DNA of 64,000 bases from Alentia gelatinosa (taxonomy: Eukaryota; Annelida; Polychaeta; Phyllodocida; Polynoidae), in assembly GCA_950022655.1 (NCBI GenBank), contig OX465581.1:107429125-107493124 (forward strand). Reading direction: 5' to 3'. The notes below the pieces were generated by a model that ran no database searches, had not been told where the DNA came from, and saw only the letters and a list, made by a program, of their open reading frames with translations. The translations under genes and the position numbers were made by a program. Every line of letters starts with the position of its first letter. Position 1 is the stretch's first letter. Positions 6,101 to 12,100 of the stretch are shown piece after piece.

Positions 6101-9100
6101 TTATTATGAATGTCATAATGAATTGTATCATGGTATGTCTCCCCACAGGAGCACCGACCCGTACCGGCTGTATAACCTTGACGTGTTTGAGTATGAACTC
6201 AACAACCCCATGGCGCTCTACGGCTCCATTCCGTTCCTTGTTGCCCACAAGTAAGAGTCTACTTTCTTCACTCATGACGTTTGTGGTTATTTATCCTGAG
6301 GACACAGGTTTTTGTACCCATATATATTTTTTTGGTTTTTTTTGCAATTTTTAACGGAATATTGTGTCAGACAATCACCGAATTCGGCTATATGGCCGTT
6401 CTTCCACTCGGTAAGCCACTGGAGGGTCCGGAGGGTCCGAGAGGGCTATGGAGGTTAGTTACAGGATCGCCTCTGGAGCCCACTTGGAAGTGACATCAGG
6501 GGTCGTCCTAGGGACTTATTAGTCTCTAGACACTCTCTGAAGGGCAGTCTCTCTCAGGATGACTCTCTGTAACCTCCTAGTCATCACTCCTCTGCCACCT
6601 GGCGGACCGCGACTGGCCGCATGATACTTCACTGAAACAGTATCTGTTGTTCCGGCTGCATGCTTGCCCATGTTTAAGCTGTTATCATCATTCTGTTCTA
6701 CAGTATATATGGATCGCATAATAAGAAAATAGCAAATTGTGTATCATGCTAGTAAGGCAACAGCCTACATAGAATTTTTTAATTGCAACTGGAAAAAAGA
6801 TCATGACCTGTCTATTGTTGACTTTTCTCAGTGAGAAGAAAACGTTGGGACTGTTCTGGCTGAATGCTGCAGAGACGTGGGTGGATATTGCGTCTAACGT
6901 TGCGGATAAGGTGACAAAGGCTTTCAATTACTTTCGTTATCATTTCACTTGCAAAATCAAATTTGTGTTTGCAAAGGGTCGAACATGCGTTATTTTATTA
7001 TCGGTAGAGGATATGATTATGCCCCCAAAATAGTTTCGAATATGATTTACCTTTGTTTCTTTGCATAATTTGAACTGAAATATTTAAAATCGGATTTCAC
7101 CGTCAGAGACATTGTCTTTGACACATTTCAATCATAGCCTTGGCTATTTTGATATATCGTCTCCCTGCCTTGTAGGGCAATCCTGAATTATCCCTCGTTT
7201 CTATGAGTTCATAGCACTTTTACACACTCCAAATCGAAGTTAAGTATGCTAATGTATTCAATATCAATGAATAAACATAACCTGTTTCATATTGAATTGT
7301 TTTTTGAATACTACAGAATTTGATGTCAAAACTGGCGAGCTTCGTGACAGGAGACAATGAGATCCCCCAGGTAGACACACACTGGTTCTCAGAGAGCGGA
7401 ATTATTGACGTCTTCTTCCTAATGGGTCCCAGTGCGAAGGATGTCTTCAAACAGTATGCTATACTCACAGGCACAACGCAACTGCCACCGGTCAGTCCAC
7501 TTCTTCACTGCTCTTGTTATCTTTCGTATATAGTTCCCAATCTCTCAGCTGTAAAACTTAGTTTCCACTAATGCATATTTTGTATCACCAAAAAAAGATG
7601 AAGACAAAAAGACGAACATATACTTAGGTGAGCGAATCTAAGGTTTTTGATGTATATTGGAATTGAAGACTGACTATTTCTTGTTTCCACTTTCCTAGAT
7701 TTTCTCCATTGCTTACCACCAGTCCCGCTGGAACTACAATGACGAGCAGGACGTTGCCAAGTAAGTACTAGAGAATATACGTGACTAGACAGGCTTTTTC
7801 TCTGAAATGAAAATACCTACATTAGGTTGCATTGTAATATATGCTTGAATTTCAGATGAGGAGAGAGATTTACCTGCAGATGTTATTAAGTGGCACAAAG
7901 TAGTACCTTTTGATTTACCGATGATATATAAATATTGGTTGTTTCCAAACCATGTAAAATTAAGACACAGGAGATGACATAATCCGAGATTTTATTTCCT
8001 TTTGAAGTAGTTTTGTCTTATGTAGAGTTTACTATTGTACAAAACTTTTATTCGAAATTGTTGTAATAGTCTTAACCAATAAAGAGTGAACACCAGTATT
8101 GGAGGAACGCAATATTGAATTGTCGATGTTAACGTAATCTAACCGTCTTCGTTTAATTATAGTGTCAATGAGGGATTCGATAAGCACAACATTCCAATGG
8201 ATGTGATCTGGTTGGATATTGAGCACACAGATGGGAAAAGGTAAGTGTCCCTTAGTGTAAAATATGAAGTATAAATTGTGCTGGGTTTAGAAGCCAGGTG
8301 ATTATGAATTATGTCTTTGCAAACTCCACATTCAAGGCATGTCAAGGCATGTTAATGAAAGTCTATTTCTCTGCAATGTATCTCGTATGATGGTCAAAAG
8401 TTTGACCGTATTGTTGAAGTGATTAATTCTGATAAGTGAATTGTTTACAAAAAAAAAAAGTTATTCTTTTAAAGAAATATATTTATTACAGTATGTATGT
8501 ACATTTGTACATGTATATGTGTCAATATGTAGTCTTGATCCAGTACATTTTTATCAGCTATTTATTACCGTACCATATTCAAAAGATCTTTAAAGGCAGT
8601 GTAGTGGAATTTCTAAAACGAACGTGACAGGTATTTCACGTGGGACGCTCTCCGCTTCCCGCGCCCGGCCGAGATGGTGCGGCGGCTGTCGCGGGTCGGA
8701 CGGCGACTGGTGACCGTGGTCGACCCCCACCTGCGGGCCGACCCCGGTTACCGGGTCTACCAACAGGCGAACGAGCAGGACCTCCTTATCAAGGACAAGG
8801 CAGGCGTCACCTATGAGGGCTGGTGCTGGCCAGGTGATAAAAGCCTCGCTGGCCACTTCCCCGATGTGTTTATCCTACCTGCAGATCGTTCCCTTTATTT
8901 TACACGAAACTGTCCTTTTTGAAATTTGATGCGGTTAGATGTGCAGGTACGCTAATTAGATCGGGAAAATTAAGTCAACGCTTTGTGTGCCGTGACCCTA
9001 CCACATGCATGAATAGATCTGTCTGCTTGCCGTATGTCGCGTGCCATGCTTCCTGCAGGGTGACTACAAGTCAGACTAAGCTGCTTTGTAAATAATTCTC

Positions 9101-12100
9101 TACGTATGGACGGATGCAATATCATATTGTTACACATTGACAGAAAATTAGCCACATATTAATGCTCTTTCGTATGTCTTGGACCACAACGTTAAGTTCG
9201 AAAAAAAACCTGAAGAAAAGACAATATGAAATGATGCAGAACGAAAAAGAAGTAATTTTTACCAAGAAAACAGAAGAAATTTGAAGTTAATGTAGTCATT
9301 CTGTCTTGGAAGGCATGCTTCATTATGTTAGCAGCCTGGGATTTATGAAGCAATTTATTTTTTTAAAGGCATGCTTGTTTCCCGCACTCATGCTTACGAT
9401 GCACCCCTCCCTCTTAACTCGTCTTCCAGATACTTCACTTGGGACGGAAACAAATTCCCCCACTCCATCGAAATGGCCAGAAACGTGTCTGCTAAGGGCC
9501 GTAAGATTGTCACCATCGTAGATCCACACATTAAACGTGACGACGGTTACAGAATTAACCAGCAGATGCGTGACGCCGGCTATTACATTAAGAACAAAGA
9601 CGGCGCCGATTACGATGGCTGGTGTTGGCCAGGTAGGGATAGAGAATTATTTTAAAGCTTGCGGTCTCACTACAACAAACAGACGTATTAAGTGATAATC
9701 ATGATTGCATATTCCATGCGAAGGGACTGGGCAGGAGAGCGTTTCTCATTGTTTCTGATTATTCCGGCATGTATCATTTGAAACAAACATTCCGATTTTG
9801 CTTATATATACAGCAAAAATTCCTCATGAAATTAGTTGGTTTACTACGTTTAGTTAATAGAGATTCCGCAAGGCTAACGTAATTAAAAAAAAACTATAGT
9901 GCTGGTAATGTCCTGAAATACACTGTACAGTTGTATTATTAAGTTCCTGATAGTTATGTCATCCATTTAGGATGATCATTAATTGGTGATCTCGTTCCCA
10001 CTGCTTATTGTTGGACGCTTCTCTTTTTCTGGTGTTAGACTTGCTTGTGCTTGTGCACTTACACGAGTAACCAGTTTGGCTCAATTTGATTTAGATAATA
10101 TCTGAAAAGCATTCCTTAGTTACTTTAGTTTATTTTTCTATAGGAAAAAGTATCGCGCCTTTGCCAAAGCTGGCACTTTGGATTTGGTTCATGCCTTTTA
10201 AATTTTGATGTCAGGCGAGCATAGCAGTTTTGAAATTTGTGCCTTTCTTCAATAATTACAAATTTGTAGAATTTTAGTAATATTTGCTTTGTGAAATTTG
10301 TTTTAATGACCCATAATAGAAGGTATGTATTCATCAGGCTTTCAGTGTTCTTGCCTGGTTGGTATTTGTGAACCTTTTCAATCTTCTGTTAAACGTTGCC
10401 ATTTTTTCTGTTATCAGCTTAAAAGAAGTCTAATTGAATATCGAAACTAAATACATGTATATACAATGTTCAGCTACGTAGATTACCAGCTGCCAGGAAG
10501 GTCTCAATTAGAGAAAGAGTAGATTCGTTCGTATGTAGCTCTTTGATGAATTTGAACAAGTCCAGGGTTGTCACATGTCAGCGAAACTTCATGGAAAAGT
10601 TAGTTTTTTAAGGTCAGTGAAATGTCAGGGAATTCATGAATTCGTCAGGGAAACTGTTTATCTTGAAAAATGTCAGAGTAAATTGACTCTTATCAGGGAT
10701 GAATGGAATTTACTAATCAAAGCATATAGAACTTGCCAAATCATATATAAACTGTAAATAGTAAAGAAAGTAGATGTGCCAAATCTTTCGAATGTCAGAG
10801 GAACTGCTGTGATCCGGCACTATCACCTTTTTTTAAAAAAAAAATTTTAAGACGTTTATTTATACTGTATGGTCCTCAGTCCAGTGGACTGGTCTCAACG
10901 TACCAACACCACGAATGTAAACACCTTAGCTACAGAAGTTGGACGGTGCATAGGTTAATCATTATCGTATTTCAAAATTTTTGTCCTAAAATAATAAAAA
11001 AGAAAGAATAATATGTGGAAGGGACCGGTTATTTTAGCTATGTGATAAAATAATTTTCTTGTTTTATTTGTCAGGGAAAAATATACTATATCAGGGACAT
11101 GTTAGGGAATTTTTCACATCCCCAGTTTGTGGCAACCCTGAAATCATTTCTGTAAGCTCTTCCCCCGGAGATATGTCTATAAGGAAAGAATGTAAATTTG
11201 AGATAAAATAAATATATGGCAAAGGGCACCTGTTGAATTTTGCTATTATTTAAAAGAAATAGATCTAAGGAATATAATTGAAAATATGTGGCAAAAACCA
11301 TGGTAATGTTGTTCACAGGCTCGTCCTCGTGGCCGGACTTCACGCGACCAGACGTGCGCCAGTTCTGGGCACAGAAGTTCCTGCTGGACGAGTACGAGGG
11401 CACGACGATGGACGTGTACACGTGGAACGACATGAACGAGCCGTCCGTCTTCAACGGGCCCGAGATCACCATGCACAAGGACGCCAAGCACGCGGGGGGC
11501 TGGGAGCACCGCGATGTGCACAACATCTACGGCATGTATGTGGTGAGTACGGTCAATAGGCCACATGGACCATTAGCTAGGCATAGTCTCAAGTCTTGTA
11601 TGTTAGTGTCAATATATGGTGGCCGGGCTTACTCTAACCCTGATGGGATTTTTATATATGTGTACCACAGGGTATGACGATGTGATTCGCTGTACGGAAG
11701 TTGATATTTATCTATATGTAAATGGTAAAAACTTTCTCCTTTGCGTGAGGTTCGTCCGCTTTCCGTGTGGGGTGTGGGACTATCTCGTGTCCTTTCACAG
11801 TATTTATCCTACCCCTAATAAAAAAAAACCATAGGCTTAACATGGGATTTGTTTATGTCACGGGTAGTGACATAAAGTGTTGTTTATGCCACTACTTTCT
11901 AATACTGAAAAAATATGGAAACGGGGTAGGATAAAATCTAGACACCACTCGTTTGAGTTTGAGCTTATTTATGCCACTCATTTTGTTGGCTCTGTAATGT
12001 CACTCGTCTTCGACTCGTGAAGTTATGGAGCCAACAAAATGTGTGGCATAAATAAACTCAAGACTCAAACTCGTGACGTCTCTTGATATTATCAATATGT

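What the first reader, a model, noticed from the sequence alone, without database searches (positions are those of the whole stretch)
8631..9632. Mutually exclusive tandem exons in the catalytic domain of glucosidase II alpha
Two exons, 596 nt apart, encode the same GH31 barrel segment (YFTWD ... VDPH ... GWCWP). Both are 203 nt long, enter in phase 2 and leave in phase 1, and differ at 32 of 67 residues. Using both shifts the frame and hits TAG at 9519-9521. Using neither shifts the frame and hits TAG at 12356-12358. The arithmetic therefore forces one or the other. I know of no such pair in the vertebrate GANAB catalytic domain. If both are used, the animal makes two glucosidase II isoforms with different active-site walls, possibly tuned by tissue, temperature or glycan substrate.
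Basis: partly seen in the sequence, partly recalled or inferred. Interest (0 to 1): 0.85.

Follow-up and report, generated by a model that had tools for sequence, protein, structure and literature searches.

The report
Duplicated alternative exon in glucosidase II
An animal's gene for a glycoprotein-processing enzyme carries two different versions of one exon of its catalytic core; only one at a time can yield a full-length protein, so the animal can probably make two forms of the enzyme, though RNA evidence is still missing.

Summary
Exons A (8631-8833) and B (9430-9632) are both 203 nt, phase 2 in and phase 1 out, and differ at 32 of 67 residues. A alone or B alone keeps the frame; both gives TAG at 9519, neither TAG at 12356. 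Both match the GH31 barrel about equally. A does not look dead: it keeps 15 of 16 family-conserved columns, where simulated neutral decay keeps 4 to 11 on average. In the 1.23-Gb assembly the A and B queries hit only these two places and the next exon hits once, so A is unlikely to come from a paralogue. Against: A evolves fast, has the weakest 3' splice site of 14 scored, and no close relative turned up in the protein searches. Best reading: mutually exclusive exons, B default, A regulated, wrong combinations frameshifted and probably decayed. No RNA was available. 'Different active-site walls' is not shown: the pocket motifs are identical. The mechanism is known; glucosidase II seems a new example.

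The parts
8163..8240 (+). Upstream exon (VNEGFDKHNIPMDVIWLDIEHTDGK), leaving in phase 2; strong donor AAG|gtaagt
   Evidence: Joined frame; donor score; match to Lingula GANAB residues 416-442
8631..8833 (+). Exon A, alternative version 1 of the GH31 barrel segment (YFTWDALRF...GWCWP); GC3 0.85, long branch
8606..8630 (+). Weak 3' splice site of exon A (7 of 16 pyrimidines; score 0.9, lowest of the 14 scored)
9430..9632 (+). Exon B, alternative version 2, the conserved type (YFTWDGNKF...GWCWP); 3' splice site score 10.2
9519..9521 (+). TAG met in frame if A and B are both included
11319..11542 (+). Downstream exon C with the motif WNDMNEP; one match in the assembly
12324..12420 (+). Next exon D
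12356..12358 (+). TAG met in frame if A and B are both skipped
148..18686 (+). Extent of the glucosidase II alpha matches inside the window; at least two more coding exons lie upstream (L003 8346-8435 and 8801-9046)
   Evidence: tblastn of P0001 and P0002

Best explanation
A and B are a tandem duplication of one 203-nt exon of the glucosidase II alpha gene, kept as a pair of mutually exclusive exons. Shown: the anatomy, the frame logic, and protein-level constraint on the pair. Inferred: B, with strong splice sites and conserved sequence, is the default exon. A, with a weak 3' splice site, is included under particular conditions by trans-acting factors while B is skipped. Transcripts with both or neither shift frame, meet a stop many exons before the gene's end and are probably removed by nonsense-mediated decay. 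The two proteins share the pocket motifs and differ around a barrel helix and in the stretch between VDPH and GWCWP, so fine tuning of stability, subunit contact or the outer substrate path is likelier than a new specificity.
For: Frame logic. PF01055 scores 49.1 and 48.5 bits. A keeps 15 of 16 columns conserved in at least 95% of 78 other segments; neutral simulations from B keep 4.0 to 10.9 on average. dN 0.38 (ML) and 0.43 (NG86) with dS saturated; 32 residue differences where 88 randomly placed base changes give mean 49.9 and minimum 40 of 5,000. At the thresholds used only A and B match in 1.23 Gb, and exon C has one match. No other exon of the partial protein searched (exons up to 14552) is duplicated in the window; the extra hits at E<=10 were noise, the best at E 0.22. 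Matches to homologues run in order from near the N-terminus to the C-terminus. Published parallel: oyster AOX, where the second duplicated exon is conserved and the first is divergent and rises under stress (PMC5589949, abstract).
Against: No RNA evidence. A's 3' splice site is the weakest of 14 scored, and 31% of the 3,524 AG sites in the window score as well. In looser columns A is less faithful than B: 25 against 28 of 30 columns at 80%. No relative of A above 62% identity was found, so the pair cannot be shown to be conserved between species. No short-intron block (596 nt) and no mixed spliceosome type. Some neutral runs reached 15 or 16 of 16 kept columns (maximum in four of six settings).
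Confidence: 0.7

Rival explanations
1. A is used mainly as a poison exon: it is spliced in together with B, shifts the frame and triggers decay, lowering the amount of glucosidase II under some conditions.
For: A+B inclusion gives TAG at 9519; A's weak 3' splice site suits a regulated exon.
Against: A poison exon needs no open frame or enzyme residues, yet A keeps 15 of 16 family-conserved columns and a full GH31 match.
Confidence: 0.13
2. A is a relic, once functional and now rarely or never spliced, beginning to decay at its 3' splice site.
For: Lowest 3' splice-site score of 14; long branch, 1.07 against 0.26 for B; no close A relative found.
Against: No stop or frameshift and conserved columns kept; neutral runs are stop-free in 3.5% to 41.6%, by setting. 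GC3 is like that of two other exons of the same gene.
Confidence: 0.13
3. A is an assembly error or a piece of a second glucosidase II gene misplaced here.
For: A's composition differs strongly from B's (GC 0.68 against 0.49).
Against: Two other exons of this gene have similar composition; the window has no N and lies in a 130-Mb contig; no further copy of this exon (E<=0.001 and E<=0.01) and one match of exon C in the assembly; length and phases fit exactly.
Confidence: 0.02

Closest known systems
Oyster alternative oxidase CvAOX duplicated exon 10 (PMC5589949; abstract and section list seen)
   Same: A mollusc enzyme gene with one exon duplicated in tandem and used one at a time; the second copy is conserved and the first divergent
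   Different: There exon 10 of 10 is duplicated, both variants are the same size, and expression was measured; here the exon is internal and frame-shifting, with no expression data
FGFR2 IIIb/IIIc (named in the title of reference 11 of PMC6071210; reference seen, introduction read; details recalled)
   Same: Decay of transcripts with both exons is named as contributing to exclusivity
   Different: A receptor segment (recalled), not an enzyme barrel
OGDH exons 4a/4b (PMC7969005; passages seen)
   Same: Mutually exclusive duplicated exons in an enzyme, changing its regulation
   Different: Exclusivity enforced by distant branch points, with an intron of 118-131 nt in birds and mammals; here the intron is 596 nt
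Human GANAB exon 6 (PMC6093180; passages seen)
   Same: Alternative splicing of the same gene
   Different: A 22-residue cassette in the disordered B1 subdomain, not in the catalytic barrel

Membership tests
Tandemly duplicated mutually exclusive exons | Neighbouring homologous exons of similar length in the same reading frame, with splice borders | tested here: met
   A's 3' splice site is weak
Tandemly duplicated mutually exclusive exons | One and only one copy in each mature mRNA | not testable with these tools
   No RNA data; only productive-frame logic
Tandemly duplicated mutually exclusive exons | Frame/decay filter: both or neither gives a premature stop (one of several possible mechanisms) | tested here: met
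   decay itself not tested
Tandemly duplicated mutually exclusive exons | Steric exclusion by a short intervening intron (one of several possible mechanisms) | tested here: not met
   Intron of 596 nt
Tandemly duplicated mutually exclusive exons | U2/U12 incompatibility (one of several possible mechanisms) | tested here: not met
   The four borders are U2-like GT-AG, judged by eye
Tandemly duplicated mutually exclusive exons | Competing RNA structures between introns (one of several possible mechanisms) | tested here: inconclusive
   Introns 1 and 2, which flank A, stand out in both screens: 1 of 40 shuffles as good for whole-intron duplexes and 1 of 30 for ungapped helices, 8331-8373 with 9141-9183. 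The other two intron pairs do not: 30 of 40 and 9 of 40, 8 of 15 and 23 of 30. Not corrected for three pairs; no relatives to test covariation
Tandemly duplicated mutually exclusive exons | Conservation of the pair in related species | tested here: inconclusive
   No relatives of this genome are held; protein searches show no close A relative, but isoforms of one species may be merged at 90% clustering
Glucosidase II alpha (GANAB, GH31) | GH31 barrel with WNDMNEP motif; best named matches called neutral alpha-glucosidase AB | tested here: met
Glucosidase II alpha (GANAB, GH31) | Enzyme activity of each isoform | not tested
   Needs expression and assay

The most novel reading that the evidence does not exclude
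An apparently single-copy ER quality-control enzyme is made in two regulated forms that differ at 32 of the 67 residues of one barrel segment. The fast-evolving A form gives cells, for instance under stress or in secretory tissue, a glucosidase II with different stability, beta-subunit contact or handling of the second glucose trim.
Probability: 0.3. Interest if true: 0.75.

Novelty: new member of a known kind. Interest (0 to 1): 0.5.

Why it matters
Glucosidase II gates entry to and exit from the calnexin cycle (recalled; the entry part is also in abstracts listed). If one gene makes two catalytic-domain versions by exon choice, ER folding control could be tuned by splicing, not only by expression level. 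The pair is also a natural within-gene experiment: two versions of one barrel segment, different at 32 sites and identical at the pocket motifs, which shows which parts of a GH31 enzyme are exchangeable.

Tried and rejected
Paralogue or misassembly: disfavoured because only A and B match in the assembly (E<=0.001 and E<=0.01) and exon C matches once. Dead copy: disfavoured by conserved columns and neutral simulation. Short-intron block and mixed spliceosomes: rejected (596-nt intron, U2-like borders). Competing RNA structure: left open. Whole-intron duplexes were implausibly long, and only the intron 1/intron 2 pair beat its shuffles, in both screens (1 of 40; 1 of 30). Age of the duplication: the tree of 91 short segments puts A weakly beside a chiton protein, but A+B as sisters is not rejected (p-AU 0.329), so the age is open. 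Species: not identified; the best identity among the 120 proteins listed is 69% over the searched region (Lingula), and the identities used a provisional splice. Literature: the listings of searches showed no report of exclusive exons in GANAB. Several listings were capped (15 of 141, 12 of 43, 12 of 26,565 and 10 of 966), and the library holds open-licence papers only. 'GANAB' does not occur in the main texts of three exclusive-exon surveys nor 'glucosidase' in the two asked for it.

Corrections of my own slips: one search ended exons C and E one base late and began exon F one base late; still ended exon E one base late. One search gives the right junctions. Several donor and acceptor coordinates were wrong by up to two bases; one search replaces them. 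The queries were provisional splices, approximate at some junctions. In one search two of the four dN/dS methods failed and NG86 gave no dS.
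Full report
What is there. The window holds most of a glucosidase II alpha (GANAB) gene on the + strand. tblastn of two homologues finds coding matches in order from 148 to 18686, and two further N-terminal coding exons lie in the 10 kb upstream (L003 8346-8435 and 8801-9046). The assembly has 1,234,393,884 bases in 101 contigs and the window lies on contig C3, which is 130,340,346 bases long. One exon slot is filled twice: A at 8631-8833 and B at 9430-9632. I searched a provisional partial protein, covering exons up to 14552, against the window at E<=10. 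This was the only duplicated exon; the other extra hits were noise, the best at E 0.22.

The observation. Both exons are 203 nt and lie 596 nt apart; they differ at 32 of 67 residues and at 88 of 201 bases, distributed 26, 22 and 40 over codon positions 1, 2 and 3. Joined to the right neighbours, A-only and B-only are open over the 384 codons tested; both meets TAG at 9519-9521 and neither meets TAG at 12356-12358. That logic is automatic for any duplicated exon whose length is not a multiple of three, so it shows which mRNAs can be productive and not which are made.

Both are real glucosidase II segments. Alone, A scores 49.1 and B 48.5 bits against PF01055, above the 23.5 cut-off. Each aligns over all 67 residues with solved chains named Neutral alpha-glucosidase AB; best E is 1.8e-20 for A and 7.6e-25 for B.

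Is A alive? From the 148 proteins fetched by then I took 89 distinct exon-equivalent segments (duplicates and rows without the motif dropped). Of these, 78 had 67 residues and were used for column counts; 11 of other length were dropped. A keeps 15 of 16 columns that are at least 95% conserved, the exception being K35 to R; B keeps 16 of 16. At 90% each keeps 20 of 21; at 80% A keeps 25 and B 28 of 30. A has 3 residues and B 5 not seen in their columns; leave-one-out among the others gives mean 1.0 and maximum 6. In neutral simulations started from present-day B (six settings, 2,000 runs each), A would keep on average 4.0 to 10.9 of 16, depending on how much of the divergence is put on A. The best single runs reached 15 or 16 in four of the six settings, and stop-free runs were 3.5% to 41.6% (all). 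The lysine in question is invariant in a 31-row alignment of homologues, so this change in A may matter. Pairwise dN is 0.38 (ML) or 0.43 (NG86) with dS saturated; two other methods failed. In 5,000 trials, 88 randomly placed base differences give about 50 residue differences (minimum 40), where 32 are seen. So A has probably been under protein-level selection for most of its history. The pairwise figures mix both branches; the column test is the one that bears on A alone.

Is A from elsewhere? The B query (E<=0.001) finds two places in the assembly, B and A. The A query (E<=0.01) finds the same two. The next exon, C (E<=0.01), finds only itself. The gene therefore looks single-copy; the tool scores only its best candidates, here 4, 2 and 5. 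A is GC-rich (0.68, GC3 0.85) and B is not (0.49, 0.61). Two other exons of the same gene are about as GC-rich (11321-11542 GC 0.62, GC3 0.93; 13263-13512 GC 0.66, GC3 0.94), so composition does not mark A as foreign.

Evolution. A sits on a branch of 1.07 changes per column against 0.26 for B, weakly beside a chiton protein (Liolophura, P0088); no starred branch holds either. Holding A and B together as sisters is not rejected (p-AU 0.329), so the duplication may be lineage-specific or older. In a search with 68 residues centred on A, 28 proteins passed among 58 candidates and the best was 60% identical. With a short query meant to catch fragments, scored over 78 residues, 64 passed among 69 and the best was 62%. 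Candidates must share exact five-residue words with the query. I saw no close counterpart of A. Isoforms of one species would differ by only about 3% and would be merged in that database, so this does not show that other animals lack the pair.

Splicing. A's 3' splice site scores 0.9 on a recalled generic matrix; the 12 other 3' sites scored (besides B) range from 5.4 to 13.1 and B has 10.2. Of 3,524 AG sites in the window, 31% score at least as well as A. A's donor (7.0) is within the range of the 13 other donors scored besides B, 4.8 to 12.6. Exons after 14552 were not scored. This suits a regulated exon with B as default, but it would also suit an exon on its way out. The 596-nt intron speaks against the short-intron mechanism and the borders are U2-like. 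Competing intron structure is open. Introns 1 and 2, which flank A, stand out in both screens: 1 of 40 shuffles as good for whole-intron duplexes and 1 of 30 for an ungapped complement, 8331-8373 with 9141-9183. The other two pairs do not stand out (30 and 9 of 40; 8 of 15 and 23 of 30). If real, that pairing would loop out exon A (inference). The whole-intron duplexes are implausibly long, three pairs were tried without correction, and there are no relatives to test covariation. The frame filter plus decay is the one exclusivity mechanism whose sequence condition is clearly met; PMC6071210 lists it among known mechanisms (introduction read).

What the two proteins would differ in. The AlphaFold model of the Lingula protein (mean pLDDT 84.6; 86 to 95 over most ten-residue blocks of this segment and 74 at its end) gives the secondary structure. 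Of the 32 differences, 11 lie in helices (18 positions), 7 in strands (13) and 14 elsewhere (36); 14 of 32 stay within a residue class of my choosing. By stretch, 11 lie between YFTWD and the next strand, 3 in that strand and 18 between VDPH and GWCWP. YFTWD, VDPH and GWCWP are identical. In lysosomal alpha-glucosidase, Asp443 and Trp481 contact inhibitors (PMC7357040, passages); I place these by memory at the D of VDPH and a W of GWCWP. The passages of PMC6583763 name W423, D451, D460, D564, R624, D640 and H698 as docked-inhibitor contacts in glucosidase II alpha. By my count all of these but D460 lie outside this exon; D460 I could not place, and by number it would fall at about the exon's first residues, which are identical in A and B. 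So a changed active-site wall is not shown. The stretch between VDPH and GWCWP could still shape the outer substrate path or contacts with the beta subunit, which was not tested.

Known and new. Tandem duplicated exclusive exons are a known kind, including in enzymes (OGDH 4a/4b, PMC7969005 passages) and in a mollusc enzyme with the same order of a divergent first and a conserved second copy (oyster AOX, PMC5589949 abstract). Human GANAB is known to splice exon 6 alternatively, a 22-residue cassette outside the barrel (PMC6093180 passages). The listings of seven full-text searches, several of them capped, showed no report of exclusive exons in glucosidase II; the library is open-licence only. 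I therefore call it a new member of a known kind, interesting but awaiting RNA evidence.

Noticed in passing
window 11321-11542 and 13263-13512: Two exons of the gene have GC3 of 0.93 and 0.94 while the other exons scored, apart from exon A (0.85), are 0.39 to 0.76: exon-by-exon GC heterogeneity within one gene.
   Followed up: partly
window 52999-56146 (+): Pieces of a neurotransmitter-gated (Cys-loop) ion channel gene: ligand-binding domain PF02931 and transmembrane region PF02932; a third piece at 53626-54003 had no Pfam match.
   Followed up: partly
window 24592-24846 (-): Exon matching E2F-associated phosphoprotein, PF10238.
   Followed up: no
window 35466-35830 with 37488-37920; 16000-16317 with 62488-62823; 32277-32813 with 56927-57309; 49718-50055 with 50095-50400: Repeated stretches similar in several reading frames, so probably DNA repeats or mobile-element pieces rather than coding (inference).
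   Followed up: no
window 11930-12093: Stretch that matches its own reverse complement at 79% (imperfect inverted repeat) in the intron after exon C; nearby 11803-11894 has similar copies near 40476 and 58054, suggesting a mobile-element remnant.
   Followed up: no
window 8331-8373 with 9141-9183: Ungapped complement between the two introns that flank exon A, reached by 1 of 30 shuffles; a possible stem looping out exon A.
   Followed up: partly
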